Shown here piece by piece: positions 21,053 to 62,115 of a stretch of 64,000 nt of DNA. The stretch comes from Raphanus sativus (taxonomy: Eukaryota > Streptophyta > Magnoliopsida > Brassicales > Brassicaceae). Numbering within the stretch: the stretch's first letter is position 1; each line of letters starts with the position of its first letter. The notes below the pieces were generated by a model. It was not told the origin of the DNA and did no database searches. It saw only the letters and a list, made by a program, of their open reading frames with translations. The stretch spans positions 24,558,973-24,622,972 of the forward strand of contig NC_079517.1 in NCBI RefSeq assembly GCF_000801105.2, given 5' to 3'. The position numbers and the translations under genes were made by a program.

Positions 21053-21072
21053 GGAATTCGTCCCCGAATTCC
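21053..21072 (-). promoter_or_regulatory. RT-A hairpin upstream of the polypurine tract
   Basis: In sense orientation GGAATTCG-GGGA-CGAATTCC is a perfect 8-bp stem with a four-base loop, ending 18 nt before the 3' LTR. It belongs to the set of similar hairpins described in the findings. Confidence 0.7.
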
Positions 21073-21529
21073 GCGTGTAGAACTCCCATTTCTTAACATC
21101 CCTTACCCAAGCAGTACACGGAGCACCAATATCTTCCAACGGTTTCTGCAATCCATGATATCCCTTGGTACTATCTCGCTGCGGCTTTATACTACTCCCA
21201 GGTCACTTCAGGCGGTACTACTTGCTTCGAGGTTTCATAGGTCTTCTTCGCTTTGTCATTAGTTCTCCCCCACTTCGATCAAGCATACAAGGTTCTTAAA
21301 CGATCTCTCAAACGTTCCTTGTACAAGTACTTCCATGGTTGTAGGATTGCGCAAGCTTTCATCAGCGGTATATGTACCCTCCACCTTCTTCCTATTCCAG
21401 CACATAAGCTTGCTACTCGGGTCAGTCGGTCCGTCTTGACGATCCCATTTCCATATGGTACATGTAACTTTTGTGGCAAATCCATACATATTCACTAATA
21501 CAACCGTCCTCGACTAACATGCTTCAACT

Positions 21530-22258
21530 CAGAATCTACATCAGAACACTAAAGGTAACACCTTGATTCCCCATGACTGGTCGAATTCCAGGCTTAAACT
21601 CATTCGTCCGGATCAGGAATACACCCACATAATCACCCATCACCCCCGGGAACAAACCAGTCACTAACACTTTGCTCAGGGTCTTTAAAACCAACGAACG
21701 AATTTGATAAATGGAATGGAGTAATGGCACAAGACATGTCCTTCCCCTTCCTCAACACAACCTCCTCAAAAACGGATTGCGGCGTCAAGGCACCACATTA
21801 CCTTGACTCTTCTGGCGCTGCACAAGGGTTGACTGAAATGGGTACTTGGGCTTCTCACTTTCAACAACATCATCCTCATCATCAGGATCAAGAATCACAA
21901 TCTCAGTGAAAGAAGGGACCACACAGAGAGCTTTCTTCTCAGCACCCACACCATCCAAATCAATCACACAATCAACAGCAAGTTGATTCTCCAACTCAAA
22001 AACTCCTCATCATCTGCTGCTGCTCCAAGCGCAGTATGAGCCGGCGATGGATATAACCAGATACACAAGCCCCATCCTCCGATTAGCCACTTCTTCCACT
22101 CCTTGGTGGCGCCCCCGAACTTGCCACCGTCTAAAGCTTCGAGCATGTTGCCGACGGCAGAGGGTTGAGAAAAGTCCGTGACTTTCGATGAGTTCCTGAG
22201 CCGCTTCGCTTCAAAGGAGCCGAGAGAGAGTCCATCGTCATCATGCTTCCTTTTGTGG
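21530..22258 (-). pseudogene. Host-gene-like coding segment inside RT-A
   Basis: The minus strand reads, with frame changes, KRKHDDDGLSLGSFEAKRLR, then VTDFSQPSAVGNMLEALDGG, then [14 protein letters not shown], a stretch with [20 protein letters not shown], and after further breaks TPQSVFEEVVLRKGKDM and VLRKGKDMSCAITPFHLSNS. Composition and the acidic D/E patch look like a nuclear host protein rather than a retroelement protein. Linkers before SNF2 helicase domains of the DRD1/CLASSY kind can look like this, but that is a guess and I do not assign it. It would be a captured gene piece, cut on the upstream side by the chromovirus insertion. Confidence 0.35.
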
Positions 22259-22279
22259 TGACCTTTAGGGGGAGTTTGG

Positions 22280-23131
22280 TGATGTGATCATGGACCAACA
22301 ACTTGATAAAGATATAGAAGAGGTGATCAAGGATAAGCAAGATGAAGATGGAGATGCCTTGGTCATTCCCAAAGGTCCCATGACTCGTGCAATGACAAGA
22401 AGACTCCATGAAGCTGTTGGAAACATACTTAAGATGTCTTGGAAGCAAGAAGATTGTCTTGGTCGTAGCTTGAGCAACCAAGACACACTTACCACACTTC
22501 AAGCTGAACCTTCAAGCTGATCATCATCTAGGCAAGTGGCTTGTGTGTACTCTTTTTCCCTTAGTTGGTTTTGTCCCACTGGGTTTTCCAACTAAGGTTT
22601 TTAATGAGGCCATGAGTTCACTTTCATATCACCTAGATGATGTATCTTTGGTGCATCTCGGATGCTTTGGACCAACCACATATCTACCTTATGTTATCTT
22701 TAATCTATAGTCTTTATTTATTTCTTATGTGTTGCAAACTCTTTAAATTTTAGTCTTTGGTCTTTGTTTGATTACCAAGGGAGCGTGTTCCCTTTAATGA
22801 TCTCGAGAACTTGAGCCTGTTCAAGTCTTCTCTCTATTTAAACTTGTCGCAAGCTTCTTTCTATGCAATCATCTTTTAATCAAAAACCTTGTTCTCTCTT
22901 AAACTTGTTTACGAGTTCTTGAGTGATCTTGTTGGTGTGTAGTATCCAGCAAACCCTAGGCATCTAAGTTGGTGTGTCATATCCAACCTAGTCATCTAAA
23001 AGTGTCCAGGAGTCTTTCCGCAACTCTTTGAATCAACCATCAGTCCACTACCTTGAAGATCTTGAGTCTTTGCCTCGATCTTGCAAGGATCTATCCATAT
23101 CATCCAGAGAATACATCCTAGGATCTTATTA
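22280..23131 (+). repeat. Chromovirus 5' LTR
   Basis: 852 bp, from TGATGTGATCATGG to GGATCTTATTA. Like the 3' copy it contains the coding tail of pol (ending at 22520), which here has no upstream frame. Confidence 0.9.
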
Positions 23132-23133
23132 AG

Positions 23134-23145
23134 TGGTATCAGAGC
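23134..23145 (+). other. Chromovirus primer-binding site
   Basis: TGGTATCAGAGC, complementary to the 3' end of initiator tRNA-Met, two bases after the 5' LTR. Confidence 0.85.
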
Positions 23146-26100
23146 ACTCTGGATAGGGAAGTTCTCGATTTCTCTTTGATTTTATTTGAACCCTTCGACT
23201 TCTTTTGAATCCATCGATTGATCTGTGTTCATCTTTGAGTTATTTCGCTAGATCTGATCGTTTAATTACCTATTGTTGTTGTTTGAATCAAATCCTGATA
23301 GATCTAGGAAGTTTCATCATATTTGATCTTGATCTATTTCGATTTCGTGTGATAGAAGTTATCAAGTATTGATCTTTTCAAATCGTGTTACCTTAGATCG
23401 CAAGTTTTCCTTTTAATCAAAGTTGTTTCCTTTTAAAAAATTTCTTGAACAACTTACTTGTTTTGATTGTTTCTTTGTCTCAGGTACCAATGGGGAACGA
23501 GTCAGATGAGGAAGCAGAACTTGTAAGGAAGAGTAGACTTCTAAGGGAAGAGATGACCGAGCAGTTACAACAAACTCTAATCACTACTGTGGCTGAGATG
23601 ATCAAGACTAGCATCACGGGTCTTCGTGATGAGATAAGACAAGAGCTAAGACAAGCTACTGGTCAGGGCCATAGTAATGAGTCTAGGAGAGAAAGAAGAG
23701 GTCAGAGTCCACAAAATCATCCTGAACCAAGGAGAGACCGTAGAGAACATGCTGGATCACAAGAGACTGACAACTACTATGAGCGCAGCCGGTCTGAACA
23801 TAGTGGTTCTTCTTCTTCTAGAGTGAGTAGAAGGCAGAGGCGTGATCATGAAGTTAGGAGACCTAAGAAAGAAGAGCTTGGTGGAGTTAAGCTCAAAATA
23901 CCTCCTTTTCATGGCAAGGTTGATCCGGATGCCTACTTGGAGTGGGAGAAGAAGATTGAGATTGTCTTCAATTGTAAGAACTATACCAACACTCAACGAA
24001 TCCAACTTGCTGCAACTGAGTTCTATGACTATGCTCTGAGCTGGTGGGATCAACTGGTTACCATGAGGCGGCTTAACCAAGAATATCCAGTGGAAACATG
24101 GAGTGAGATGAAGTCTCTTATGCGCAAGAGGTTTGTACCGAGCCACTACCACAGGGATCTTCACCAGAGACTAAGAAAACTCACTCAAGGAGCTAAGACC
24201 GTAGAGGAATACTATCAAGATATGGAGCTGTTGATGTTGAGAGCCAGTATATCAGAAGATAGAGAAGCTACTATGTCAAGGTTTCTTGGAGGGCTCAACC
24301 GAGAAATACAAGATAAGGTAGAGATGCAACACTATGTGGAAATAGAAGAGATGTTGCATAAGGCCATTCTAGTGGAGCAGCAGCTCAAGAGGAAGGGACA
24401 TTCACGTGGAAGCTATGGGACTACTCGGTTCCAAAGTCCTAAGGAAGATAAGCCTAACTACCAGAAGGAGAGTAAACCTTATCAGAAAGATGATACCAAG
24501 CCTAGCAACATTTACAGCAAGGACAAAGGAAAGACAGGAGCCACTGGTTCCAAAACCAGAGATGTCAAGTGCTTTAAGTGTCAAGGGCGTGGGCACTATG
24601 CCAATGAGTGTACTAATAAGAAGACGATGATTCTTCTTGACACAGGGGAGTATATGTCTCAAGATGAGAAGATACACACTGATCATGAGCAGACTGAAGA
24701 GGAGTTTGAAGAAGAACCGGTCAAGGGAAGGTTGCTAGTGACAAGAAGGCTCTTGAATCTTCAAACTAAGACAGATGAGATTGAGCAGCGAGAGAACTTG
24801 TTCTACACTAGGTGTTTGGTTCAAGGGAAGGTATGTAGTCTTATCATTGATGGAGGCAGCTGCGTCAACGTGGCTAGCGAGACTATGGTCAAGAAATTGG
24901 GTTTGCAAGTTCAGAAGCATCCAAAACCATATAGACTGCAGTGGCTTAATGAGCAGGGCGAGATGAGGGTCTCTGATCAAGTAATGGTACCTATAACCAT
25001 AGGGAGATATGAGGATGAGATCTTATGTGATGTGAAACCTATGGAAGCAAGCCATATTCTTCTCGGACGACCATGGCAATCTGATAGACATGTGATACAT
25101 GATGGCTTCACCAACAAGCACTCGTTTGAATTCAGAGGAAAGAAGACAGTGCTGGTACCATTAACCCCTAAAGAAGTGCAAGAGGATCAGCTCCATCTAC
25201 AGAAAAAGAAAGAGATTGAACTCAAAACTGATCTCAACAAGCAGCATAGCTTCTATGCCAAACAGGGAGATGTCAAACGAATTCTCTACTCTCAAAACTC
25301 TATTTTGTTGCTTGTGTTTAAAGAATCTTTGCTAACCACCACTGATCATACACCGGACCATTCGAGTGAACTAGTTTCTCTTTTACAGGAATATGCAGAT
25401 GTGTTTCCAGAAGATAGTTCCAATGGTTTACCTCCAGTTCGTGGGATTGAGCATCAGATAGACTTTGTACCTGGTTCCACACTACCAAACCGACCTGCAT
25501 ACAGAACTAATCCAGTGGAGACTAAAGAATTGCAAAGACAAGTAGAGGAACTGATGGAGAAGGGTCATATCCGAGAGAGCTTGAGTCCATGTGCAGTACC
25601 AGTGCTTCTTGTGCCTAAGAAAGATGGTAGCTGGCGCATGTGTGTTGATTGTAGAGCAATCAACAACATAACAGTGAAGTATCGACACCCTATCCCTAGA
25701 CTTGATGATATGCTTGATGAATTGCATGGTTCTGCCATATTTTCTAAGATAGATCTTAAGAGTGGATATCATCAAATTAGGATGAAAGAGGGAGACGAGT
25801 GGAAAACTGCATTCAAAACTAAGCATGGTTTGTATGAGTGGTTAGTCATGCCTTTTGGATTAACCAATGCTCCTAGTACATTCATGAGATTGATGAATCA
25901 TGTGCTTAGATCATTCATAGGCATCTTTGTCGTAGTATACTTTGATGATATCCTAGTCTATAGCAAAAGTCTTGATGATCATATAGAACATCTTAGGGCT
26001 GTTTTAAATGTTTTGAGGAAAGAGAAGCTTTATGCTAATCTAAAGAAGTGCACCTTTTGCACAGATAACTTGGTTTTTATAGGTTTTATTGTGAGTGCAG

Positions 26101-27965
26101 ATGGAGTGAAGGTTGATCCCGAGAAGATCAAAGCCATACAAGAGTGGCCAACTCCAACTACAGTGGGAGAAGTGAGGAGTTTTCATGGGCTAGCAGGTTT
26201 CTATAGGCGCTTTGTGAAGGATTTCAGCACTATAGCAGCTCCCCTGACCGAGATCATCAAGAAGGATGTAGGATTCAAGTGGGGAGAAGCACAAGAAACT
26301 TCATTCAAAATCCTTAAAGAGAAGCTTACTCACTCCCCTCTTCTTATGCTTCCTGATTTTTCTAAAACCTTTGAAATAGAATGTGATGCCTCAGGAATTG
26401 GAATTGGTGCTGTATTGATGCAGGATAAAAGACCCATAGCATACTTCAGTGAGAAGCTTGGAGGGGCAACTCTCAATTATGCAACGTATGACAAGGAGTT
26501 GTATGCTTTGGTGAGGGCCTTGCAAACTTGGCAACATTATCTATGGCCTAAGGAGTTTGTCATCCACACAGACCATGAGTCTCTCAAGTATCTTAAGGGA
26601 CAAAACAAGCTGAGCAAAAGACATGCGAGATGGGTTGAGTTCATAGAAACCTTTCCTTATGTGATCAAATACAAACAAGGTAAGGACAATATAGTGGCTG
26701 ATGCACTATCTCGAAGGTATGTTCTCTTAAACACTCTTGATGCTAAGCTACTAGGCTTTGAACAGCTTAAAGAAATGTATGAAACTGATCCTGAGTTTAA
26801 AGAGGCATACAAGTCTTGTGAAAAGTTTGCTGCTGGTCATTATTTTAGACAAGATGGATTTCTCTTTTATGATAATCGTTTGTGTGTGCCTAATTGCTCT
26901 TTGAGGGATTTGTTTGTTAGGGAAGCCCATGGAGGAAGTCTTATGGGACATTTTGGTATTGCCAAGACGCTTAAAGTTTTGCAGGATCATTTCTTTTGGC
27001 CTCGCATGAAGAGAGATCTGGAGAAAATCTGTGAGAGATGTGCAACTTGTAAACAAGCTAAGTCCAAAGTCCAAGCTCACGGTTTGTATACTCCTTTACC
27101 CATTCCTAACCATCCTTGGAATGACATCTCTATGGATTTTATTGTTGGATTGCCTAGGACTAGAACCGGAAAGGATTCAATCTTTGTAGTTGTTGATAGG
27201 TTCTCCAAAATGGCTCACTTCATTGCTTGTCACAAAACTGATGATGCATTGCATATTGCTAATTTGTTCTTTAAAGAGATTGTGCGTTTGCATGGTATGC
27301 CTAGAACTATAGTATCTGATAGAGACACCAAGTTTCTTAGTTACTTTTGGAAGACACTTTGGTCTAAGTTAGGCACTAAACTGTTGTTCTCAACTACTTG
27401 TCACCCACAAACTGATGGTCAAACTGAAGTAGTGAATAGAACTTTAGGAACACTCTTGTGTGCATTCATTAAGAAGAACTTGAAATCATGGGAAGACTGT
27501 TTGCCTCATTGTGAATTTGCATATAATCATGCTGTGCACTCTGCTTCTAAGTTTTCTCCTTTTGAAATTGTTTATGGGTTCAATCCCACCTCTCCTTTGG
27601 ATTTAATACCTTTACCTGAGTGTGAAAGGATTAGTATGGATGGCAAAAGGAAGGCAGAGATGGTGAAACAACTTCATGAGCAAGCAAGGCGCAATATTGA
27701 AGAGAAAACCAAGCAGTATGTTAAACATGCTAATAAGGGCAAATGAGAGATGGTCTTTGAAGTAGGTGATCTAGTATGGGTTCACCTAAGGAAAGAGAGG
27801 TTTCCTAATCAAAGGAAGTCCAAGCTCATGCCGAGAATAGATGGACCTTTTGAGGTCACAAAGAAGATCAGCAACAATGCTTACAAGCTCGATCTCCAAG
27901 GTAAGTATGATGTGAGTAATAGTTTCAATATTACTGACTTGATCCCTTTTATTGCAGATGAACCA

Positions 27966-27981
27966 GATTTGAGGACAAATC
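27966..27981 (+). promoter_or_regulatory. Chromovirus hairpin upstream of the polypurine tract
   Basis: GATTTG-AGGA-CAAATC is a perfect 6-bp stem with a four-base loop, 19 nt before the 3' LTR. It lies inside the pol frame (DLRTNPF), so it is under two constraints. Confidence 0.7.
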
Positions 27982-27989
27982 CTTTTCAA

Positions 27990-28000
27990 GAGGGAGGGGA
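27990..28000 (+). other. Chromovirus polypurine tract
   Basis: GAGGGAGGGGA lies directly against the 3' LTR and overlaps the pol frame. Confidence 0.8.
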
Positions 28001-28852
28001 TGATGTGATCATGGACCAACAACTTGATAAAGATATAGAAGAGGTGATCAAGGATAAGCAAGATGAAGATGGAGATGCCTTGGTCATTCCCAAAGGTCCC
28101 ATGACTCGTGCAATGACAAGAAGACTCCATGAAGCTGTTGGAAACATACTTAAGATGTCTTGGAAGCAAGAAGATTGTCTTGGTCGTAGCTTGAGCAACC
28201 AAGACACACTTACCACACTTCAAGCTGAACCTTCAAGCTGATCATCATCTAGGCAAGTGGCTTGTGTGTACTCTTTTTCCCTTAGTTGGTTTTGTCCCAC
28301 TGGGTTTTCCAACTAAGGTTTTTAATGAGGCCATGAGTTCACTTTCATATCACCTAGATGATGTATCTTTGGTGCATCTCGGATGCTTTGGACCAACCAC
28401 ATATCTACCTTATGTTATCTTTAATCTATAGTCTTTATTTATTTCTTATGTGTTGCAAACTCTTTAAATTTTAGTCTTTGGTCTTTGTTTGATTACCAAG
28501 GGAGCGTGTTCCCTTTAATGATCTCGAGAACTTGAGCCTGTTCAAGTCTTCTCTCTATTTAAACTTGTCGCAAGCTTCTTTCTATGCAATCATCTTTTAA
28601 TCAAAAACCTTGTTCTCTCTTAAACTTGTTTACGAGTTCTTGAGTGATCTTGTTGGTGTATAGTATCCATCAAACCCTAGGCGTCTAAGTTGGTGTGTCA
28701 TATCCAACCTAGTCATCTAAAAGTGTCAAGGAGTCTTTCCGCAACTCTTTGAATCAACCATCAGTCCACTACCTTGAAGATCTTGAGTCTTTGCCTCGAT
28801 CTTGCAAGGATCTATCCATATCATCCAGAGAATACATCCTAGGATCTTATTA
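28001..28852 (+). repeat. Chromovirus 3' LTR
   Basis: 852 bp, nearly identical to the 5' LTR. The first 241 bp are the coding tail of pol. Confidence 0.9.
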
Positions 28853-28857
28853 GTTGG

Positions 28858-29200: not shown

Positions 29201-29214
29201 CGCGCGTGTCCTAC

Positions 29215-30365: not shown

Positions 30366-30384
30366 GCATGGATATAATGGGTGG

Positions 30385-30411
30385 TTTTTTTTTTTTTTTT
30401 TTTTTTTTTTT
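30385..30411. repeat. Poly(T) run in the RT-A leader
   Basis: A run of about 25 T in the leader between primer site and gag; on the sense strand it is poly(A). Confidence 0.8.
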
Positions 30412-30532: not shown

Positions 30533-30544
30533 GCTCTGATACCA
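30533..30544 (-). other. RT-A primer-binding site
   Basis: On the minus strand TGGTATCAGAGC, next to the right LTR. It fits initiator tRNA-Met and fixes the element's orientation. Confidence 0.85.
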
Positions 30545-39244: not shown

Positions 39245-39259
39245 TTCTCCCCTCCTTCA
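39245..39259 (-). other. RT-B polypurine tract
   Basis: On the minus strand TGAAGGAGGGGAGAA directly precedes the 3' LTR. Confidence 0.85.
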
Positions 39260-39260
39260 A

Positions 39261-39280
39261 TGAATTCGTCCTCGAATTCA
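39261..39280 (-). promoter_or_regulatory. RT-B hairpin upstream of the polypurine tract
   Basis: In sense orientation TGAATTCG-AGGA-CGAATTCA, a perfect 8-bp stem with a four-base loop, 16 nt before the 3' LTR. Against the RT-A hairpin the basal pair is T:A instead of G:C, a compensatory change. Confidence 0.7.
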
Positions 39281-47739: not shown

Positions 47740-48462
47740 GATGACAATAGGAGAGTTCCCACACTTTCAAACCTTTCTCCCTGTTCTTGATACTTGAATT
47801 TGTTCGAGGACAAACAAGGATCTAAGTCTGGGGGAATTGATATATGGTGTTTTTAGACATCTTGTATATATGTTTTCTAATTGGTTTTTAAATTTTTATC
47901 GAGTCTTAGTCCTTTTCGAGTCATTACAGGTCTAGAGTTGCCTTGGATTGGAGATGGACCAGTTGGAACAAAAGAGGCAGAAAAGAGTGCAATTTGGAGA
48001 TTTTCATGCAGAGCAGTCTGATGGCTGTTCCCGATCGAGCGGAGCACCCGAGTGCCTGTTACAGCGGCAGAGAGCTTTAAGTAAACTACTACAAGTTATT
48101 TCGGGATTTTTCCTAACCATCCTAATTTTCTCTCTGGCCGCCAACGACATCCATATATCTTCTTTTTCCTATTTTCTATTATTTTCTATGCTAGTTTTGG
48201 GAGAGAAACCAGACTCTAGAGCTTTGATACATTGGGATTTGCTAGTTTCTAAAGGGAGAAGGTCATCTCTCTCGATTTAGAGAAGAACCCCATGTACCCT
48301 CTTTGTTTATGTTATCTTTATGCAGCATTATTCAGTATCATTCTCTGTGTTTTCTCTGTCCATGGCTGAGTAGTCAGCTTGCTTAGTCTAGGATGTTGGG
48401 TGTTAGATCTCTGAGCTTGACATAAATAAGTTAATCATTTGTTTGTCTTCATTCACTGTTGT
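47740..48462 (+). mobile_element. Athila-like 3' end fragment (Athila 1)
   Basis: The polypurine tract AAGTCTGGGGGAAT (47824-47837) and the LTR start TGATATATGGTG at 47838 are typical of Athila. The LTR seems cut at about 48462, where another repeat begins. Confidence 0.55.
47800..47817 (+). promoter_or_regulatory. Athila 1 hairpin upstream of the polypurine tract
   Basis: TTGTTCG-AGGA-CAAACAA: a 7-bp stem with one C.A mismatch and a four-base loop, 20 nt before the LTR. Confidence 0.55.
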
Positions 48463-50792: not shown

Positions 50793-50822
50793 TGGCTCAT
50801 CATTCCCTCTTTCTTTAAAAAG

Positions 50823-50836
50823 ATTTGCCTTCAAAT
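50823..50836 (-). promoter_or_regulatory. TRIM-like hairpin upstream of the polypurine stretch
   Basis: In sense orientation ATTTG-AAGG-CAAAT, a 5-bp stem with a four-base loop, 30 nt from the 3' LTR. It is a weaker relative of the other hairpins. Confidence 0.45.
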
Positions 50837-50985
50837 ATGTCTTTCTTTAGCTTCAGATAGAATGATCTCTTGCCTTTTCGTAGAACTCTTTTTTTTTTTT
50901 TTTTTTTAGAAAAGAAGATTAAAGGTAGAAGATTGATGAAGATGATGGAAAGATGAGAAAAATGAACAAATAGTACCGGTTGAGT

Positions 50986-50998
50986 GGCTCTGATAAAA
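50986..50998 (-). other. TRIM-like primer-binding site, degenerate
   Basis: TTTTATCAGAGCC on the minus strand, against the usual TGGTATCAGAGC, two bases from the right LTR. Confidence 0.5.
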
Positions 50999-52997: not shown

Positions 52998-54560
52998 TGT
53001 TGCGGTCATCAAACCAGTGGTTGAACCAGAGGTCAACCAAGCAGCCCAAACCGGCCACTTTGGAGGTACCAGCGACATAGGTCCAGTCCCAGGCAAATAT
53101 CTCAACAACCAGAAGGTCTTTTGTCATGAATCCAATTTTCCTAGAAGGCCAACTCATGACGGATTCACTGAGGCTTAGAATTACAAGAAAAAGTTCACGG
53201 AGGAAGAAGTTATGAATTTTACAAACCGGAGGTTCCCCAGCCAATCCATCTGCGAGTACCCGACTTTTGAAGGAGATTCAAGCCCAATGAAGGAGCGGCC
53301 TGAACCAAAGCCGATCATAGGATTCAAGAGGAGTCTCTCACCTTTCCATAAAGCCCAGTATCAGGAGAAATGGCCACGGAAATCAGGAGTTATGCCCAAT
53401 TTGCCAGAACCGGTCAAACCAGTTCTACACTTGCCTCAATTGGAAGCTAACCGGTTCAATCAGCTTCAAACCAGATATTGGCGTCCAGGAGATCATTCCA
53501 ACCAATCAGGAGGTATTGAAGAAGTCCTTAGCTACACCAGAGCCCAGGAGATCAGTTGGTTCAATGAAGAGTCACTTAAATCAAACCGGAGCTATTTATG
53601 GAAAGATTGGACAATCTATCGGTTTGATCATTTCCAACCAATTCCAATCCGACCAGAAGACATAAGGACTGAACCAGGACGTCCAGGAGACATTATAGGA
53701 GTTCAAGAAGAGTTCCATGAGTTCATACCTTGCACCAGCTCCCATTGGATCAGGAGGATCCACACTTACACCAAAACTGCCTTATTTGGAGATTCTTGCA
53801 ATAAAGCTCCAACAGCTCTTTCTCTCCAGATCAGGCACGACTTCAGCTCATTCCAGACAGTAAAGAAGGTCCCAAGAATGCTCACTTATCCCCTTAAACC
53901 ATCCAGGTTCAAGAAGATATCAAGATACAAGATCATCTCTTTGAAGAAAGCACAAATCAAGCTAAAGGCTAGTTTCATGGAGCCATCAAAGCCTTTGCTT
54001 CCAAGATTTTTATTTCAAGTTTATTTCTTTCCTTTAGTCCATTTTAGACTGTTAGAGAGTTATTATGTCGAGCCTATATAAGCTCAGTCCCTTTCATCTT
54101 TGTAAAGCACCCTTGAATTTTATGAATGAAAATAAAGTTTTCTAGTTTTCTTAAAACTATTGTTTGAAGTCTTTTGAGTTTGTGAGAAGCAGCTCTTGAG
54201 CAACCAGGCTTATCAAAGTCTCCTTTCACAGAGCTTTGTGGTGTCTATTCAATCCATTTCGTCCATCATCCATCAGATTGAGAGATTCAATCAAACCTTC
54301 ATCCACAACTCCACTTAAATCCATCAACTAATTAGGCTGAGAGTGTCACACGACCAGCAGCTTAATTCCATCCTATCTATCCTTTTTACCTTGCTTATTT
54401 ATCTTATTTAGTTCATCATATAATCCTCAGTCCATTCATATTTCATTTGTTTCTGTTTTGCTTCATAAAAACTCATAAAACTCATAAAAATCTATCTTCT
54501 TTGTTTTCAGGTTGAACCTCAGTTCATCAATTCATATGGTCTGATTTCCAGGCTGTATCA
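52998..54560 (+). repeat. RT-C 5' LTR
   Basis: From TGTTGCGGTCATC to GGCTGTATCA. TATA box TATATAA at 54075-54081. The long U3 frame of the 3' copy is here broken by TAG at 53176-53178, where the 3' copy has TGG. Confidence 0.92.
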
Positions 54561-54562
54561 TT

Positions 54563-54574
54563 TGGTATCAGAGC
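54563..54574 (+). other. RT-C primer-binding site
   Basis: TGGTATCAGAGC two bases after the LTR; fits initiator tRNA-Met. Confidence 0.85.
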
Positions 54575-55137
54575 TCAAGCTCCTGACTAAGGTGATATCT
54601 ATCCTTGCATTTCATATTTGCTTGCATTTGTTTTTCATTTATAAATCAAAAGCCATAAAAACAGTTTCTGCATTTTTGTGTTCTTGTTGCATTCAAAAGA
54701 AAAAATTATAAAAAGAAGAAGACAAGTTTAATTTCGTGTAGATCATCTAGGATTCAAATTCTATTCATTAGCTTGTTTGCATTCATTGGCCAGCTCCATT
54801 TTCCATATTTATATTTTGTGCATTCATTTCAAAAAAAAAATTCTGCATTTTGCATTTTTGACTCTTGCATAAAAAAATTCAAAAAACAAATAAATTCAGC
54901 ATTAGTTTTCTTTCCATATTTTCTTTTCATTTGTGTTAATTGTCATTTACTATTGGTTCATTTCGAGATTTGCTTTAAGAAAACCAAAAGAAAAATAATT
55001 TTGCATAATTTATTTCATTTCGGTTCAACATTGCATATTTTCTCGGTTTAGTTTTAATTAGCTTGCATTGGGTTTATTTTGGTTCAATCAGATTTATCTA
55101 TTCTTCACTTGATCTTTGAAAGTGGTTTCAGGAAGCC
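54575..55137 (+). other. RT-C leader
   Basis: Non-coding T-rich leader ending in TTTCAGGAAGCC just before the gag ATG, so a leader intron is possible. Confidence 0.45.
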
Positions 55138-57447
55138 ATGGTAGGAGAAGCACACAACCAATATCAGATGGCCAAAAAGAACCAACATTTGACAGCTTTG
55201 CAAGAGGTTGAACAGATTGCTCAGTTGAGGAAAAGAAGAAAGGCACAAGGCCAACACCCACAGCCAGGAGAAAGAAGATTTGGAGATGCACCAGAGGCTG
55301 TCTATGTCGAGCCCAAGCCACCAGATCCTTCAAGGATCAATCAAACTCCAATTTCTAAAACCCACAACCATCATGTTGTTAAATCTCGGTTTGATTATAA
55401 CTCTTTTGCTGATAAAATTGAACTCTTTAAATTTTCAGGAAAAAGAGGTTATCTTAGATGGGAGAGAAACCTAGATGAATGGTTTCATTACAACAACATC
55501 ATGAAGGAAGAGAGGCTAGCTTATGCCATTGATCTACTTAGAGAAGAAGCCTTCAAATGGTGGGTACAAGAAGAAGATGATAGGCGGTTTTACAAGGAGC
55601 CAACTATCAAAACGTGGAGAGCTCTTAAGGGAGTCATGAGACATGAGTTTGCACCAGATTTTACAAGTTCTGAAATCAAGGAACTTTATCCAAGGAGGTA
55701 CCCAACTCATGGTTCCAAAGATGCTAGAAAAGTTGTTGCACAAGAGAGTAAGAGAGGCTGGTCTCAACAAACCAACTTGCAACCAAACCAGGGGCACGCC
55801 ATTGTCCAATGCTTAGACCAGAAAAGTGACATCCCAAAGGCCATGGAGAGTAGAAGTGTCGGCCAAAACACTTTGATCAGAACCAAAGCAAAACCATTGC
55901 TAGATACTATGCAAGTAAAGGCTAAGGTAAGTCCTATACTTGATAATTTGGTTTATGAATCTTCTTCCACTGGTATAAGTCACTTGTCTTTTTCAAAGAA
56001 TGTTAAGACAGGTCCTGAGGTCCAGCAAAATCCGAACTCCACATCCTTGTTTGAATCCAAAGTTCACAAAGAATTATTTCCAAGGAACAAGAAAATTTTA
56101 GACCTCAAAGAGGAGGACACATCAAGCCAAGGTAAGTCTTCTGATTTTAAAATTCTGAAGGATCAGACATGTCTTAAAATAGGACACCTTGCTGAAGCTT
56201 GTCCAATTAAACAAGTATTGAAAGAAACATCACTAGAAACTAAAACTGAATTGTTAAAAATGAGTGATAGTTTTATTCAATCTGATTTGTTGTTTCCAAA
56301 TTCTTGTATAATGCACTTGTCTTTGTCAAAGGGTATTGCATCAGGAATTAAGGAGCGTGAACTTAAAAGAGAAGACCTAGTCTACCAGCATGGCATTGCT
56401 AAAGAGGAGGAAGCCATAAGTGAGGCTGGAAGAAATGATTTGTTGCTTAAGGAAGCAAAACCAGTAATCAAAGTATCAAACCAAGGTAAGTGTTTAACAA
56501 CACCTTTAGATACTGGTTTAAATTTTCATATTCTTGGTACAGGGATACCAGATGAGAGCTCTATGCTTACTGAAGTGCCAAGGGCCGAGCCAGACCCTGA
56601 GATCAATCAAGATCCACACCACAAGTGGAAACCAAAATCTGAACAAAGAATTGTTCAAGTGCCAAAACCTGAGGTAAATTTCACTATAGATCAGAGTGCT
56701 ATTATTATTTCCATGATAAGATTAATGCACTTGTCTTGTCCAAGAGAATGTGAAATATTTTCAGGAACCAAGGGGGAGTACACTGCCCAAAAAGAAGAGA
56801 CACAATCCATGATGTTACAAGATGCTGAATCAACTCCAAGTGTTTCTAATTTAAATTCGCCCTTATTACTTGATAAAGAAGATATTATGCACTTGTCTTT
56901 GCCAAAAAGTTTTGATCCAGGAATAAAAGAAGTTGAAGCTCATAACCACCAAAGTCAAAAGTTGCAAAGAAGGCAGCAACCAAAAACAAGATATCCAAAG
57001 AAGAAAATCATTCTTCAACTTATGGAAGTTATCAAAGTAAGTCTGGGAATTTCTAATTATTTTTATCAGTGTCCAAACACAGATATAATGCACTTACTTT
57101 TTGTCCAGAAAGTTGAGAAATTTTCAGGTTGCAAAGAAGAAAGCTTCAAGGATATCCCACCAGATTATCTTGTGTTGCTAGGAAGATCAACTCCAAGAAG
57201 GACCAGAAACATGGCCCCTAATAATCTGAAGGACCATCCACTCCAGAAGAGATGCAATGACCAGAAACATAGCAGAGGCGTGATCCTTTCCTATCTGTCC
57301 AAAGAAGAGCCACCAGATGCATCATGCCACACCAAACCAAAATTGTATCATCAAGGTAAGGTTCTAAACTCCCAAATGAGAATGAAACCTGACTTGCTCT
57401 ATTGTGGTGTATCAGGTTATCCAGTTTTGAGGTCAAAACCTTCATAA
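55138..57447 (+). CDS. RT-C gag-like protein (769 residues)
   Basis: Structural protein of a non-autonomous retrotransposon. The start MVGEAHNQYQMAKKNQHL is the first ATG after the leader. Residues about 95-180 are the Retrotrans_gag core (FKFSGKRGYLRWERNLDEWF, AFKWWVQEEDDR, RALKGVMRHEFAP). Near residue 344 CLKIGHLAEAC looks like a CCHC knuckle that has lost its first cysteines. From about residue 280 on, a motif of the form (I/L)MHLSLxK appears five times (near 280, 391, 529, 583, 650), each tied to intron-like DNA signals. The rest is charged and not recognised. There is no enzyme domain. The stop (57445-57447) lies at the polypurine tract, and the same frame continues into the 3' LTR. An intact frame fits a young copy. 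Confidence 0.8.
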   Translation: MVGEAHNQYQMAKKNQHLTALQEVEQIAQLRKRRKAQGQHPQPGERRFGDAPEAVYVEPKPPDPSRINQTPISKTHNHHVVKSRFDYNSFADKIELFKFSGKRGYLRWERNLDEWFHYNNIMKEERLAYAIDLLREEAFKWWVQEEDDRRFYKEPTIKTWRALKGVMRHEFAPDFTSSEIKELYPRRYPTHGSKDARKVVAQESKRGWSQQTNLQPNQGHAIVQCLDQKSDIPKAMESRSVGQNTLIRTKAKPLLDTMQVKAKVSPILDNLVYESSSTGISHLSFSKNVKTGPEVQQNPNSTSLFESKVHKELFPRNKKILDLKEEDTSSQGKSSDFKILKDQTCLKIGHLAEACPIKQVLKETSLETKTELLKMSDSFIQSDLLFPNSCIMHLSLSKGIASGIKERELKREDLVYQHGIAKEEEAISEAGRNDLLLKEAKPVIKVSNQGKCLTTPLDTGLNFHILGTGIPDESSMLTEVPRAEPDPEINQDPHHKWKPKSEQRIVQVPKPEVNFTIDQSAIIISMIRLMHLSCPRECEIFSGTKGEYTAQKEETQSMMLQDAESTPSVSNLNSPLLLDKEDIMHLSLPKSFDPGIKEVEAHNHQSQKLQRRQQPKTRYPKKKIILQLMEVIKVSLGISNYFYQCPNTDIMHLLFVQKVEKFSGCKEESFKDIPPDYLVLLGRSTPRRTRNMAPNNLKDHPLQKRCNDQKHSRGVILSYLSKEEPPDASCHTKPKLYHQGKVLNSQMRMKPDLLYCGVSGYPVLRSKPS
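55927..57415 (+). repeat. Intron-like modules within RT-C gag
   Basis: Donor-like AAG|GTAAG sites at 55927, 56132, 56486, 56674 (GTAAAT), 57037 (AGTAAGT) and 57356, each followed by T-rich sequence, four of them including ATGCACTTGTCTTTG or a close form, and by acceptor-like CAG sites at 56025, 56344, 56542, 56764, 57127 and 57415. All are translated through. Spacing is 99, 213, 57, 91, 91 and 60 nt. Confidence 0.5.
57424..57439 (+). promoter_or_regulatory. RT-C hairpin upstream of the polypurine tract
   Basis: GTTTTG-AGGT-CAAAAC, a 6-bp stem with a four-base loop, 19 nt before the 3' LTR and inside the gag frame. Confidence 0.65.
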
Positions 57448-57458
57448 GGGGGAGGGAA
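57446..57458 (+). other. RT-C polypurine tract
   Basis: AAGGGGGAGGGAA directly before the 3' LTR; it overlaps the gag stop codon. Confidence 0.85.
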
Positions 57459-59021
57459 TGTTGCGGTCATCAAACCAGTGGTTGAACCAGAGGTCAACCA
57501 AGCAGCCCAAACCGGCCACTTTGGAGGTACCAGCGACATAGGTCCAGTCCCAGGAAAATATCTCAACAACCAGAAGGTCTTTTGTCATGAATCCAATTTT
57601 CCTAGAAGGCCAACTCATGACGGATTTACTGAGGCTTGGAATTACAAGAAAAAGTTCACGGAGGAAGAAGTTATGAATTTTACAAACCGGAGGTTCCCCA
57701 GCCAATCCATCTGCGAGTACCCGACTTTTGAAGGAGATTCAAGCCCAATGAAGGAGCGGCCTGAACCAAAGCCGATCATAGGATTCAAGAGGAGTCTCTC
57801 ACCTTTCCATAAAGTCCAGTATAAGGAGAAATGGCAACGGAAATCAGGAGTTATGCCCAATTTGCCAGAACCGGTCAAACCAGTTCTACACTTGCCTCAA
57901 TTGGAAGCTAACCGGTTCAATCAGCTTCAAACCAGACATTGGCGTCCAGGAGATCATTCCAACCAATCAGGAGGTATTGAAGAATTCCTTAGCTACACCA
58001 GAGCCCAGGAGATCAGTTGGTTCAATGAAGAGTCACTTAAATCAAACCGGAGCTATTTATGGAAAGATTGGACAATCTATCGGTTTGATCATTTCCAACC
58101 AATTCCAATCCGACCAGAAGACATAAGGACTGAACCAGGACGTCCAGGAGACATTATAGGAGTTCAAGAAGAGTTCCATGAGTTCATACCTTGCACCAGC
58201 CCCCATTGGATTAGGAGGATCCACACTTACACCAAAACTGCCTTATTTGGAGATTCTTGCAATAAAGCTCCAACAGCTCTTTCTCTCCAGATCAGGCACG
58301 ACTTCAGCTCATTCCAGACAGTAAAGAAGGTCCCAAGAATGCTCACTTATCCCCTTAAACCATCCAGGTTCAAGAAGATATCAAGATACAAGATCATCTC
58401 TTTGAAGAAAGCACAAATCAAGCTAAAGGCTAGTTTCATGGAGCCATCAAAGCCTTTGCTTCCAAGATTTTTATTTCAAGTTTATTTCTTTCCTTTAGTC
58501 CATTTTAGACTGTTAGAGAGTTATTATGTCGAGCCTATATAAGCTCAGTCCCTTTCATCTTTGTAAAGCACCCTTGAATTTTATGAATGAAAATAAAGTT
58601 TTCTAGTTTTCTTAAAACTATTGTTTGAAGTCTTTTGAGTTTGTGAGAAGCAGCTCTTGAGCAACCAGGCTTATCAAAGTCTCCTTTCACAGAGCTTTGT
58701 GGTGTCTATTCAATCCATTTCGTCCATCATCCATCAGATTGAGAGATTCAATCAAACCTTCATCCACAACTCCACTTCAATCCATCAACTAATTAGGCTG
58801 AGAGTGTCACACGACCAGCAGCTTAATTCCATCCTATCTATCCTTTTAACCTTGCTTATTTATCTTATTTAATTCATCATATAATCCTCAGTCCATTCAT
58901 ATTTCATTTGTTTCTGTTTTGCTTCATAAAAACTCATAAAACTCATAAAAATCTATCTTCTTTGTTTTCAGGTTGAACCTCAGTTCATCAATTCATATGG
59001 TCTGATTTCCAGGCTGTATCA
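57459..59021 (+). repeat. RT-C 3' LTR
   Basis: 1563 bp. The U3 part is almost wholly an open frame up to the TATA box at 58536-58542. Confidence 0.92.
57478..58542 (+). CDS. U3-encoded ORF of RT-C (354 codons), hypothetical
   Basis: Open frame inside the 3' LTR, in the same frame as gag and separated from it only by the gag stop TAA; codons continue from the stop through the polypurine tract (GGGN) into the LTR (VAVIKPVVEPEVNQAAQ). From the first ATG it reads MVEPEVNQAAQTGHFGG, with a proline-rich middle (NLPEPVKPVLHLPQLEANRF), aromatic stretches (SYLWKDWTIYRFDHFQPIPI), a basic part (RFKKISRYKIISLKKAQIKL) and the end RLLESYYVEPI. The stop TAA (58540-58542) is the end of the TATA box TATATAA. 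The 5' LTR copy has one internal stop. No family is recognised. It could be a translated accessory protein or a readthrough extension of gag, or the relic of a lost coding region taken into U3. Confidence 0.5.
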   Translation: MVEPEVNQAAQTGHFGGTSDIGPVPGKYLNNQKVFCHESNFPRRPTHDGFTEAWNYKKKFTEEEVMNFTNRRFPSQSICEYPTFEGDSSPMKERPEPKPIIGFKRSLSPFHKVQYKEKWQRKSGVMPNLPEPVKPVLHLPQLEANRFNQLQTRHWRPGDHSNQSGGIEEFLSYTRAQEISWFNEESLKSNRSYLWKDWTIYRFDHFQPIPIRPEDIRTEPGRPGDIIGVQEEFHEFIPCTSPHWIRRIHTYTKTALFGDSCNKAPTALSLQIRHDFSSFQTVKKVPRMLTYPLKPSRFKKISRYKIISLKKAQIKLKASFMEPSKPLLPRFLFQVYFFPLVHFRLLESYYVEPI

Positions 59022-59115
59022 GTTTCTTTTGGTTATGAGCCCCCATCTTCAAACCTTTTCTCCTTGGTTCTTGAAAGTTTACTTGTGGACAAGTAAAGGA
59101 CTAGTGTGGGGGAGT
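59022..59115 (+). mobile_element. Athila 2 interior resumed, with polypurine tract
   Basis: After the RT-C target duplication the Athila 3' end continues to the polypurine tract GTGTGGGGGAGT (59104-59115), directly before the LTR. Confidence 0.7.
59078..59097 (+). promoter_or_regulatory. Athila 2 hairpin upstream of the polypurine tract
   Basis: TTTACTTG-TGGA-CAAGTAAA, a perfect 8-bp stem with a four-base loop, 18 nt before the 3' LTR. Confidence 0.75.
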
Positions 59116-60590
59116 TGAAATCTTGCATATTTGCATTGTTTTAGCTATTCATTCATAAGCATTTGCATCATATAGATTAGGATTTAGACATGTTTAGGTT
59201 CCATTTGGCATACATATGTCTCTATCAGGTATTGGAACACCACATGGAGTTCTTGGAGACATTTGGAAGCAATGTGATCAAAAAGAGGGTGAAAGATGAG
59301 CATGGATGGAGGCCTTAGAGAAATCTTCTGTTGCTAAGATTTTGTGGGCACACTGGGAATTGAGTTAGATTTCTAATGGAAGTGGTTTCAAGTCATTTGG
59401 AGATGTAATGGAGGAGTTATGATCAATTTACTAGAGGCATATCCATCCTGCTCGAGAACCGCAGAGTGACCTTCTGGAGCGACCTCCTAAGGTAGCTCCC
59501 AACCAGAGCGACCAACCAGAGCGACCTACCTAAGTCGCTCGCATTCTCATCGCCCGGAGACACAAAAATTGAGGCTGGAGCGACCTCTCAGAGCGACCCC
59601 CCAAGGTCGCTCCCAACCCCAGAGCGACTTCCTGGAGTGACCCTCTGAGGTCGCTCCGCGTTATCTGCTGCACGATTTAATTATTTTTCAAGGACCTTTT
59701 TGCAATTTGTTATGCACGTTTTTAGACTTCTAAACCTAAGTTTAAGTACTTTGTAAGCCTATGGAGGCAGATCTATCTTTTTTTCATTGGAAGAACACAA
59801 AACTCTCAATAAAAGTTCATCTCTTTTGGATTTTGATTTGTTATGTTCTTGTGTTTCTGTTGATTTCTTATCTATTTCTCTACATGATTAATCTGAAATC
59901 TACCATGGGTTTAAGAGGAATCATGGAGATTAGTGAGTAATCACCTTTTGAATTCATGGGTTAGGGAGATTAAGGGTGATTAGGCTAGTTCTATGATGTT
60001 TTAGTGTAGATCATTCTTGTTCCTTGCTAGTAGAGTATTCATAATGCATCTTTTGAGTTAGCCACTTAAAAGTTGATCATTAGGCTTTTTCCCACCCAAA
60101 AGGTGTTTGATGAAATGTCTGAGACAACTCTCCTAAGCTTTTAGTGTACTTTGCCAAAGACATTTGTTGTTAAAGATGCTAAGATAGCTATTAGACTTGT
60201 TCTTAATGATTGCTTTCATATTATTCAACCAAAGACATTTGATGTTTGAGATGTGTTAGCAAATAAGCATTCATCTAGACATAGAGCTTGCTTAGAATTG
60301 TGTTTAGGCTTAAGGTTGATAGTTTGATTGATCATTTGCATTTCTTAGTTTGAAACTTGATCACCCAAGGTCAAATTCCCTACACCCATGAGTTCTCTTT
60401 TCCATTAGTTAAGAAAGTATCATTCTTTTATTGCATTCAATCATTAGTAGTAATTTAAAATCATTCAAATCTCTGGTTGCACTTAGATTAAATAGGCACT
60501 TACATTCTCATTGCTTTAAATCCCTTAGAATTGGTTCGACAATCTTTTATACTACATCATTTGTCTTAGGAGCCTTGAAAACTCTTAACA
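59116..60590 (+). repeat. Athila 2 3' LTR
   Basis: From TGAAATCTTGCATATTTGC to AACTCTTAACA, 1475 bp, plus orientation. The 5' part of the element is missing on the left. It contains a GAGCGACC repeat patch. Confidence 0.7.
59452..59665. repeat. GAGCGACC minisatellite-like patch in the Athila 2 LTR
   Basis: About ten degenerate copies of GAGCGACC or its complement GGTCGCTC, often as inverted pairs such as GAGCGACCTCCTAAGGTAGCTC. Confidence 0.85.
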
Positions 60591-60722
60591 TCACTTACGA
60601 CGATTCCTAAAACGTGTGTCGTCCTAAAATCGTCGTAATCTCCAAAAACACGGCTTGTCATTAAATCATCATAATGTCTAAAAACGTGTTTCGTACCAAC
60701 TTAGTCGTAAATTACGCCTACT
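60591..60722. other. Spacer with ACGACGATT / AATCGTCGTAA inverted motifs
   Basis: A short stretch between two Athila LTRs that repeats ACGACG/CGTCGT words with AAAACGTG (TACGACGATTCCTAAAACG, then AAATCGTCGTAATCTC). It may be a fragment of a DNA transposon. Confidence 0.35.
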
Positions 60723-62076
60723 TGATAGTGCTCAAATTACCAATAAGAGTTTACTCTCTCAAATAAGAGGTGCAGCTGTAGTACATAGGGATCAAATCAC
60801 GAGGAGCTGGGGAACCAATTAAATATAATCTACTAATCAATCCTAGGTGAATTTGGTTTTAATGATAGAAATATAAATAGCAATTCCTAAAATGAGCAAG
60901 GTAGTTGCTCTAACTAACAATATGATGGGTTGTTTAAATGTGACAAAGAGTGCTAGACTTGGGGCTTTTATTCAGGAATGGAGATCATAATTTCTATAAA
61001 TGCTTTAACAAGTTGCTTGCATGATACTATAGAACTCAGTCGCTTAACTCTAGTGATGTCTCACTGGTTAAATAATCTAGATCTCTGGCCTCAACTGTCG
61101 TATGTTGACACAGAAAAAGATTCGATCGACATCCTTTAGAGATATCGACCGATACACCTTTCGCTCGGCGATCGATTCACCTGTCGGGATATCGATCGAC
61201 GGCTTCTATATATGCCTAGGAGCGAGCTGATAATGAACACTAGGTCTCAAGGAGGGATGTCGCTCTTCTCGACAGGAGACGAACTAGTTCAAATGGATAA
61301 TTCAAGATAATCAAAGATCCTAGTGATCTATATTCTAGTTAGCTATTCTAGAACAAGCATAGGGTGCAATCCACTTGATGAGTATCACAACTTAGCAATT
61401 ATAGTTTGGGGCTAATCTCACAAACCTATTTAAACCCTAGATCTAACAAGTAGACTACTCAGATATAGCTAAGCAATTCATGACAATGGATAGATGAAAG
61501 AATTGCATAGATAGAATAAAGTAGAGATATAAAAGGAGATGAGAAATCTCTCCAATCTCTCAAAAACAAATAAATCTCTAGTCTCTCTCTCACACTCTCT
61601 GCTTTGCCTCTCAAGACTTGTGTTTCTTAGACTCTTCAAAGCTTGCCGTCAAAAACACTTAGCAGGAATACTTAAGCATTTCCATTAGGTTAAGAACTCG
61701 TCAGGGGCAATCTTGTAATTTGGTGAAGTCTTGGTGAAGTAGTCGGCTAAACCATTTCGTCCTCGATATCGATCGACAACACTGATGTGTATCGATCGAT
61801 TATAATATTCTAGTACGCGGATCTTCTCAGCTACATCGATCGACAACTCTGGATGAGTATCGATCGATTCTAATCGCAATGTTGACTTCCTACTTGGTCT
61901 TGAATGGTCAACTCGGGTATATCATCTCTTGCACTCCAAAATGCTCCAAAAACATCACTTTCTCACGAAATGCTCCTGAACCTGAAAACATACCTAACAG
62001 GCTAGTAAACAGATTAAATATATAATAAAATACTAGTATACCATGGTAAAAAACGGGTAAAATCCATGGTATATCA
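60723..62076 (-). repeat. Athila 3 3' LTR
   Basis: From TGATAGTGCTCAAATTACC to CCATGGTATATCA, 1354 bp, minus orientation since the polypurine tract lies on its right. TCGATCGA-rich patches at 61115-61203 and 61766-61872. Confidence 0.7.
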
Positions 62077-62091
62077 ACTCCCCCAGACTTA
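62077..62091 (-). other. Athila 3 polypurine tract
   Basis: On the minus strand AAGTCTGGGGGAGT directly precedes the LTR. Confidence 0.75.
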
Positions 62092-62095
62092 CTCC

Positions 62096-62115
62096 TTTGC
62101 TTGTCCTCAAGCAAA
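62096..62115 (-). promoter_or_regulatory. Athila 3 hairpin upstream of the polypurine tract
   Basis: In sense orientation TTTGCTTG-AGGA-CAAGCAAA, a perfect 8-bp stem with a four-base loop, 19 nt from the 3' LTR. Confidence 0.75.

What the first reader, a model, noticed from the sequence alone, without database searches (positions are those of the whole stretch)
21053..62115. Conserved hairpin with a four-base AGGA-like loop 16-20 nt upstream of the 3' LTR in seven different LTR retrotransposons
Read in sense orientation, every LTR element here with a preserved polypurine tract has a hairpin just before it: RT-A GGAATTCG-GGGA-CGAATTCC (21053-21072), chromovirus GATTTG-AGGA-CAAATC (27966-27981), RT-B TGAATTCG-AGGA-CGAATTCA (39261-39280), Athila 1 TTGTTCG-AGGA-CAAACAA (47800-47817, one mismatch), RT-C GTTTTG-AGGT-CAAAAC (57424-57439), Athila 2 TTTACTTG-TGGA-CAAGTAAA (59078-59097), Athila 3 TTTGCTTG-AGGA-CAAGCAAA (62096-62115). 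Gaps to the LTR are 18, 19, 16, 20, 19, 18 and 19 nt. A TRIM-like element has ATTTG-AAGG-CAAAT at 30 nt. Stem bases vary but pairing is kept, the closing pair is always G:C and the loop is nearly fixed. In two elements it lies in coding sequence, in the rest in non-coding, so protein coding does not explain it. A cis-acting RNA or DNA signal for plus-strand priming, RNase H choice of the polypurine tract, or packaging is a reasonable guess. I cannot say whether it has been described.
Basis: partly seen in the sequence, partly recalled or inferred. Interest (0 to 1): 0.88.

Follow-up and report, generated by a model that had tools for sequence, protein, structure and literature searches.

The report
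RNA hairpin beside retrotransposon priming site
Many plant Ty3/gypsy retrotransposons, and a few relatives probably from other eukaryotes, carry a small RNA hairpin about 18 bases before the start of their 3' repeat, which probably helps their copying enzyme cut the primer for the second DNA strand at the right place.

Summary
All seven hairpins are at the stated coordinates; six have perfect 6-8 bp stems, against about 2% of random positions. An eighth, TRIM-like element carries a worn copy. In the window's own 433 Mb genome a hairpin+PPT pattern matches 1109 times, its reversal 0 times, and the version with the reverse-complement loop 3 times: the loop is strand-specific. Stems covary (52 cells changed on both sides, 18 expected). 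The spacer from hairpin base to LTR is 18.0 +/- 1.15 nt in 19 elements, while the PPT start varies. Elements without recognisable genes keep the hairpin, and a second, internal PPT of Athila-like elements has its own. Plant pol tails co-vary as hairpin codons would. One probably fungal relative has the same AGGA hairpin, but 10 of 14 contaminant ends lack a comparable stem. Nine Ale-like copia elements lack it and have the published stem with the PPT in its loop. Best reading: a cis-acting RNA signal for plus-strand priming, perhaps a ruler for RNase H. Conservation is shown; mechanism is inferred. My literature searches found no description.

The parts
21053..21072 (-). RT-A hairpin GGAATTCG-GGGA-CGAATTCC
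21035..21052 (-). RT-A spacer and PPT, 18 nt, up to the 3' LTR (LTR 19231-about 21034)
27966..27981 (+). CRM-like chromovirus hairpin GATTTG-AGGA-CAAATC, in frame with pol tail D-L-R-T-N
27982..28000 (+). CRM-like spacer and PPT, 19 nt; 3' LTR starts 28001
39261..39280 (-). RT-B hairpin TGAATTCG-AGGA-CGAATTCA
39245..39260 (-). RT-B spacer and PPT, 16 nt (LTR taken to start at the TG, 39244; BLAST similarity runs to 39252)
47800..47817 (+). Athila-like 1 hairpin with one C:A mismatch
47818..47837 (+). Athila-like 1 spacer and PPT, 20 nt
57424..57439 (+). RT-C hairpin GTTTTG-AGGT-CAAAAC, codons V-L-R-S-K
57440..57458 (+). RT-C spacer and PPT, 19 nt; 3' LTR starts 57459
59078..59097 (+). Athila-like 2 hairpin TTTACTTG-TGGA-CAAGTAAA
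59098..59115 (+). Athila-like 2 spacer and PPT, 18 nt
62096..62115 (-). Athila-like 3 terminal hairpin TTTGCTTG-AGGA-CAAGCAAA
62077..62095 (-). Athila-like 3 spacer and PPT, 19 nt
63090..63108 (-). Athila-like 3 internal hairpin TTACACT-GGGAT-AGTGTAA before a second PPT (63070-63080), about 1 kb upstream of the terminal one; a fuller copy elsewhere in the genome reads TTACACTG-GGGA-CAGTGTAA
   Evidence: (12.7 bits, E 0.046)
50823..50836 (-). TRIM-like element hairpin ATTTG-AAGG-CAAAT (5 bp, worn), found by the covariance model although not used to build it
   Evidence: 22.2 bits, E 5.9e-5
50803..50822 (-). TRIM-like spacer and PPT, 20 nt to the TG at 50802

Best explanation
The hairpin is a cis-acting RNA element of Ty3/gypsy-type retrotransposons that belongs to the polypurine tract. 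It acts during reverse transcription to define the plus-strand primer. Proposed working: when reverse transcriptase, copying the genomic RNA, reaches the base of the hairpin (kept folded by a protein that recognises the G-NGGN-C loop, for instance nucleocapsid zinc knuckles or RT itself), it pauses. Its RNase H centre then sits about 18 bp behind, at the PPT/U3 junction, and makes the cut that fixes the primer 3' end and so the LTR terminus. Shown: the hairpin, its covariation, its strand-specific loop, its 16-20 nt distance to the LTR in the elements examined, its presence at a second PPT, its retention in elements without recognisable genes. Inferred: that it acts on plus-strand priming, that it pauses RT, and which protein binds the loop.
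For: Covariation: 24 distinct hairpins, 90.1% of cells paired (shuffled 65.2, slid 20.8-47.6), 52 cells changed on both sides (shuffled 18.3 +/- 3.6, 0 of 500 as high); 14 representatives 93.8%, 30 against 8.8. Strand: AGGA-loop pattern 543+566, reversed control 0+0; TCCT-loop pattern 3+0, one of the three reading as a real flipped-loop copy. With the loop left free, 393 matches, control 0; of the 100 listed 31 AGGA, 65 TGGA, 3 CGGA, 1 TGAA (counted by eye; copies of few families). Distance: 19 elements, hairpin to LTR 18.0 +/- 1.15 nt, hairpin to PPT start 6.8 +/- 3.0; with obvious relatives merged, 17.8 +/- 1.15. The second PPT of Athila-like elements has its own, differently spelled hairpin (14+23 matches at 34 places, control 0). 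The open frames searched in RT-A, RT-B and RT-C have no Pfam domain, and the TRIM-like internal region is about 200 nt, yet the hairpin stays. HIV RT makes a polymerase-dependent RNase H cut 18 bp behind its polymerase site, and pausing inside the HIV PPT has been proposed to allow the PPT-U3 cut (PMC3185654, passages); the Ty3 separation is given as ~13 bp (PMC5371799, passages), which would need a stall about 5 nt before the stem.
Against: Several hairpins are weak alone (-2.9 kcal/mol for the chromovirus and RT-C, -1.4 for Athila 1, -0.2 for TRIM), too weak to stop RT unaided, so a bound protein must be assumed. Antisense strands mostly fold about as well. Outside the window's genome the feature is patchy: 10 of 14 contaminant ends lack a compact stem >=6, and those 14 were chosen by eye after hairpins had been printed. 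Ten regions downstream of integrase hits gave the hairpin in 4. No hairpin-blind frequency among gypsy families could be obtained. No functional data exist here.
Confidence: 0.55

Rival explanations
1. Packaging or Gag-binding signal: nucleocapsid zinc knuckles bind the exposed GG of the NGGN loop so that genomic RNA is recruited into particles; closeness to the PPT is incidental or ties packaging to full-length RNA.
For: Loop GG is invariant in the alignments and nearly so in the listed genome copies; the chromovirus Gag-Pol has a CCHC knuckle; elements without recognisable genes keep the hairpin. That retroviral NC binds exposed G in tetraloops is recalled, not from a call.
Against: Distance to the LTR stays within 16-20 nt, and the second internal PPT has its own hairpin; packaging needs neither.
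Confidence: 0.2
2. Conserved protein coding: the hairpin is only the DNA of a conserved pol C-terminus.
For: In the chromovirus and RT-C it is in frame, and the tail is conserved among plant proteins.
Against: In the RT-A, RT-B, Athila-like and TRIM-like elements the frames over it are short, 81 codons at most. Tail residues co-vary as base pairing predicts: 15 distinct tails, codon-compatible stem 5.80 against 4.55 shuffled, 0 of 5000; 13 of 5000 with the grass tails and ISRAKS left out.
Confidence: 0.03
3. Double-stranded DNA site, such as a transcription-factor or cruciform site near the 3' LTR.
For: The arms are palindromic in DNA.
Against: Loop is strand-specific, 1109 against 3 matches, and arm sequence varies while pairing is kept.
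Confidence: 0.05
4. Shared descent only: all elements inherited one sequence and the hairpin has no present function.
For: Within-family copies are near identical, and relatedness inflates shuffle tests.
Against: Six of eight pairs changed on both sides, two differently spelled hairpins exist in one element, and a probably fungal element has different arms with the same loop.
Confidence: 0.05

Closest known systems
[quoted passage not shown] 2010, PMC2829016; passages read)
   Same: A stem at the plus-strand priming site of plant LTR retrotransposons, proposed there to help correct PPT processing by RNase H.
   Different: There the right arm lies in the LTR and the PPT is part of the stem-loop. 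Here the whole hairpin lies upstream of the PPT, has a conserved NGGN loop, and occurs in gypsy-type elements. PPT-flanking stems at the eight window sites are only 3-5 bp against 8-10 bp in nine copia elements.
PPT-containing hairpins, Benachenhou et al. 2013 (PMC3601003; passages read)
   Different: They mean hairpins with the PPT in the loop; no upstream hairpin is described in the passages seen.
T-box/U-box upstream of the PPT in retroviruses and Ty1, and TCTT in fission yeast elements (PMC10085805; passages read)
   Same: A cis element just upstream of the PPT that matters, or may matter, for plus-strand priming.
   Different: It is a short T-rich sequence touching the PPT, not a covarying hairpin 18 nt from the LTR.
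Retroviral psi stem-loops with G-rich tetraloops; AGNN tetraloops of yeast RNase III substrates (recalled, not from a call)
   Same: Small stems with exposed G in a four-base loop.
   Different: Position, partner protein and function differ or are unknown.

Membership tests
Copia/Sirevirus PPT-flanking inverted repeat | Left arm before the PPT pairs with a right arm inside the 3' LTR | tested here: not met
   Best such stem at eight window sites is 3-5 bp; null P(>=7) is 0.044, P(>=8) 0.014
Copia/Sirevirus PPT-flanking inverted repeat | PPT lies inside the stem-loop | tested here: not met
   Hairpin ends 2-12 nt before the PPT starts in 19 of 19 elements listed
Cis-acting RNA secondary structure | Compensatory base changes between elements | tested here: met
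Cis-acting RNA secondary structure | Strand-specific loop | tested here: met
   1109 against 3 matches
Plus-strand priming signal | Fixed position relative to the PPT/U3 junction | tested here: met
Plus-strand priming signal | Changes in the element alter PPT cleavage or plus-strand initiation | not testable with these tools
   needs biochemistry
Nucleocapsid-binding packaging signal | Binding by Gag NC and loss of packaging without it | not testable with these tools
   only the exposed loop GG is seen
U-box/T-box | T-rich tract directly before the PPT | tested here: inconclusive
   Spacers listed vary; some T-rich (chromovirus, TRIM), others not (Athila-like)

The most novel reading that the evidence does not exclude
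An ancient RNA ruler: Ty3/gypsy elements of flowering plants, probably ferns, and fungi place a protein-read hairpin one RT footprint (about 18 nt) before the end of each PPT they use, including internal PPTs, so that a stalled RT cuts exactly at the primer end and thereby sets the LTR terminus.
Probability: 0.3. Interest if true: 0.85.

Novelty: new variant of a known kind. Interest (0 to 1): 0.74.

Why it matters
How RNase H spares the PPT and cuts precisely at its end is a long-standing question. A hairpin at a nearly fixed 18-nt distance gives a simple testable answer for one of the most abundant classes of DNA in plants. It also gives a practical landmark for finding the 3' ends of gypsy elements and of elements that carry no genes, and it explains a conserved pol C-terminal peptide (DLRTNPFQEGG and variants) as, at least in part, a translated RNA signal.

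Tried and rejected
Viral contigs held no relatives. Folding energy alone was a weak discriminator: combined p = 9e-4 for the window, 6e-4 for 14 contaminant ends, 0.79 for copia, but single sites are unremarkable. The planned hairpin-blind samples (PF24626; PPT+LTR pattern) did not complete, so no unbiased frequency among gypsy families is given. A DNA-level site was rejected because the loop is strand-specific. A kissing partner for the loop was considered: the only TCCT/TCCC-loop hairpins of stem >=6 in the window are reported ones of minus-strand elements; other partners were not searched.

Rows dropped or chosen: of 29 distinct regex peptides, 15 were kept as real tails by eye and 14 dropped; the regex asks for R, so tails without R are missed (P0145 reads D-S-G-S-S-L, which would fit a GGGN loop, and P0157 D-S-G-L-R-L does not fit plainly; neither is counted). 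ISRAKS (P0044) abuts a gap in its gene model; without it the tail test still gives 0 of 5000, and without the grass ES tails too 13 of 5000. Of 27 PPT+TGT sites printed, 14 were judged LTR ends by eye, after the hairpins had been printed, and tested; 13 were left out as coding, wrong strand or duplicate (among them L014 6777, a relative of L012 with a worn hairpin). Of the five contaminant ends used for spacing only L012 has a confirmed LTR pair. The 20 sites fetched were picked by eye from 100 listed of 1109, for diversity; 15 of 20 have stems >=6 with G:T allowed, the other five 3-5. Copia: 10 chosen, 9 had an LTR pair, the tenth (L100/L101) none; of five long-ORF integrase hits looked at near +5.4 kb, 3 had the hairpin; of five others looked at nearer, 1 (L123, chosen although its terminal site was already in the listing). 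One search was given 51 of 117 loci then held. The 19 elements include relatives (chromovirus/L058, RT-C/L094, Athila-like 2/L080, L078/L092).


Full report
WHAT WAS CHECKED. The window lies in a plant genome of 433 Mb held as G000, at C7:24558973-24622972. Among the 120 proteins listed for its chromovirus pol the most similar are from Brassica napus (up to 93%). LTR pairs exist for RT-A (minus strand), the chromovirus nested inside it (plus), RT-B (minus), RT-C (plus) and a TRIM-like element (50032-50796/50999-51769, read on the minus strand). The chromovirus is called CRM-like because its frame, after a stop at 27746, continues through hairpin and PPT into the 3' LTR, as described for CRM group A in PMC3059260 (passages).

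IS IT MORE THAN CHANCE? In the window 65 perfect hairpins have stem >=6 and a 4-nt loop. Only 7 have a GG/CC-centred loop and six of these are reported ones; first-order Markov shuffles give 1.9 on average. Random anchor points have a stem >=6 ending 12-22 nt upstream in 2.05% of cases; 6 of 7 element ends have one. Among 24 purine-tract+TG sites in the window, 7 have one within 12-34 nt: six true ends and one other. A covariance model from 14 representatives (seven of them the window sites) finds those seven and then the TRIM-like site (22.2 bits, E 5.9e-5), which it had not seen; the next hit has E 0.046 and is the internal Athila-like site discussed below; further hits have E 0.15 or more.

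GENOME-WIDE. Pattern TYGAGGACRAN{10,22}GGGGGAG has 543+566 matches, its reversed control 0+0. The same pattern with the loop reverse-complemented has 3+0, two of them not LTR-like and one a flipped-loop copy. With the loop left free (CTTG-NNNN-CAAG-N14-GGGGGAG) there are 199+194 matches and no control match; of the 100 listed 96 have AGGA or TGGA, 3 CGGA and 1 TGAA (many are copies of few families). Twenty sites were fetched; arms differ between families and pair. On 24 distinct rows 90.1% of cells pair against 65.2% shuffled and 20.8-47.6% with partners slid; 52 cells changed on both sides against 18.3. On 14 representatives the values are 93.8%, 68.5%, and 30 against 8.8. The measures that count pairs or pair types do not exceed shuffles clearly (6 pairs, 360 and 50 of 500 shuffles as high; pair types 182 and 345 of 500). 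The closing G:C pair, the T:A pair at position 3 and the loop GG never vary in either alignment. The search pattern imposed the three inner pairs on the fetched sites (the second only as Y/R); the outer five were free.

POSITION. Over 19 elements (7 of the window, 7 others of the same genome, 5 from contaminant loci) the distance from the hairpin base to the first LTR base is 18.0 +/- 1.15 nt (16-20), whereas the distance to the PPT start is 6.8 +/- 3.0 nt. Two further sites found later by the model have 20 and 19 nt (L038, L027; counted by eye, LTR not confirmed).

SECOND PPT. Athila-like elements of this genome have a second purine tract about 1 kb upstream of the 3' LTR. An extra PPT is known in Athila4 and Calypso (stated in PMC2829016, passage). 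It is preceded by its own hairpin, TTACACTG-GGGA-CAGTGTAA, 9 nt before the tract and 16 nt before its end (L123), and in the window's Athila-like 3 by a worn copy at 63090-63108, 9 and 20 nt. The pattern ACTGGGGACAGTN{8,24}GGGGGG matches 14+23 times, at 34 places, with control 0. On contigs C1 and C2, 4 of 5 places have the terminal hairpin about 1.0 kb downstream on the same strand. No such site was found upstream of Athila-like 1 or in the stretch searched for Athila-like 2. This ties the hairpin to PPTs rather than to the LTR.

CODING. In the CRM-like clade the hairpin is codons of the pol tail. Among 194 proteins held after two searches (each listing 120 of 7863 and 3776 hits), 15 distinct tails were recognised, for example DLRTNP, DSRSNP, ESRTTL (Lolium), ASRSTP and ISRAKS (Tarenaya). 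Each can be coded so that 5 or 6 bp form around an AGGN loop; the mean is 5.80 against 4.55 when the last two residues are reshuffled, 0 of 5000 as high. Without ISRAKS it is again 0 of 5000, and without the grass ES tails too 13 of 5000. In the 15 kept tails the residue after R is T, S or A, that is an NCN codon, as a closing C requires; they were kept by eye, so this is a description and not a test. Relatedness leaves about five independent combinations (inference). In L027 actual DNA shows N-S-R-T-N-S as AATTCG-AGGA-CGAATT.

OTHER HOSTS. A scan of bacterial assemblies gave 17 contaminant loci with gypsy pol. L007 has AGGATTG-AGGA-CAATCCT 16 nt before its presumed LTR; its pol is closest, among named hits, to Morchella sextelata at 64%, with an unnamed hit at 73%, so it is probably fungal. 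L012 has CACTTCTG-GGA-CAGAAGTG 17 nt before a confirmed LTR. Of 14 ends tested, 4 have stems >=6 against 0.3 expected (p = 2e-4), with the choice of ends not blind. The model adds L038 and L027, and gives L001 and L007 at E 3e-4 and 9e-4; L001 has only a 4-bp stem. L027, L038 and many others lie in one assembly labelled Trichormus; Trichormus azollae is the name of the 'Nostoc azollae' cyanobacterium (its partnership with the fern Azolla is recalled), so these are probably fern sequences. Ten of 14 contaminant ends lack a compact stem >=6, so the feature is not universal or is often less regular.

COPIA CONTROL. Ten Ale-like copia elements of the same genome were fetched and nine showed an LTR pair (the Ale label is recalled). 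None of the nine has an upstream stem >=6 in place, and nine of nine have an 8-10 bp stem between the sequence before the PPT and the LTR start, with the PPT in the loop. This is the kind of arrangement published for Sireviruses and some classic copia elements (PMC2829016, passages). The eight window sites lack it. The two groups looked at thus use different structures at the same place.

MECHANISM. HIV RT makes a polymerase-dependent RNase H cut 18 bp behind the polymerase site, and pausing caused by the HIV PPT itself has been proposed to allow the PPT-U3 cut (PMC3185654, passages). For Ty3 the separation is given as about 13 bp (PMC5371799, passages). A hairpin whose base is 18 nt from the PPT/U3 junction could stall RT with RNase H at that junction. 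Because some stems are only -2.9 kcal/mol or weaker, and because the loop is conserved, a loop-binding protein is assumed. Packaging remains the main rival.

NOVELTY. Ten full-text searches were made, nine bearing on such motifs and one (54) on RT geometry; none of the listed titles and abstracts describes this upstream hairpin. The listings were capped (for example 25 of 1,398, 30 of 111, 10 of 123), and subscription journals are not covered. In the passages shown to me of PMC2829016, PMC3601003, PMC3059260, PMC11963269, PMC6911290, PMC10085805 and PMC1142308 it is not mentioned; I did not read these papers whole, and sequence figures are not held.

Noticed in passing
L098, L102, L104, L106, L108, L110, L112, L114, L116 (own genome): Nine Ale-like copia elements have an 8-10 bp stem such as TCAAGCTTA...TAAGCTTGA enclosing the PPT, with a C:G to G:C swap in L116.
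   Followed up: partly
window 63070-63108 minus; L123 1603-1643 minus: Second, internal PPT of Athila-like elements with its own hairpin about 1 kb upstream of the 3' LTR.
   Followed up: yes
L012 4602-4631 and L013 about 4117-4147: In contaminant gypsy elements a TCGAGGACGA-like hairpin followed by a purine tract lies inside integrase-coding sequence; in L012 the stretch AAGAGGGGAGATA there also occurs at the terminal PPT. Possible central PPT.
   Followed up: no
window 50797-50998: TRIM-like element with LTRs of about 770 bp and only about 200 nt inside: tRNA-Met-like PBS, an A-rich stretch, hairpin and PPT, resembling a stripped CRM element (PBS identity recalled).
   Followed up: partly
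G000:C9:16055179-16055211 (+): An Athila-like end whose loop reads TCCT instead of AGGA, as if the loop had been flipped.
   Followed up: no
G000:C2:23363043 and 23375041 (+): Two identical hairpin-PPT sites 12 kb apart on the same strand around one integrase hit, perhaps a tandem pair sharing an LTR.
   Followed up: no
L001-L017 (genome contigs): Bacterial assemblies, including a Bradyrhizobium contig and a Trichormus MAG, hold eukaryotic-type gypsy elements, presumably contamination.
   Followed up: partly
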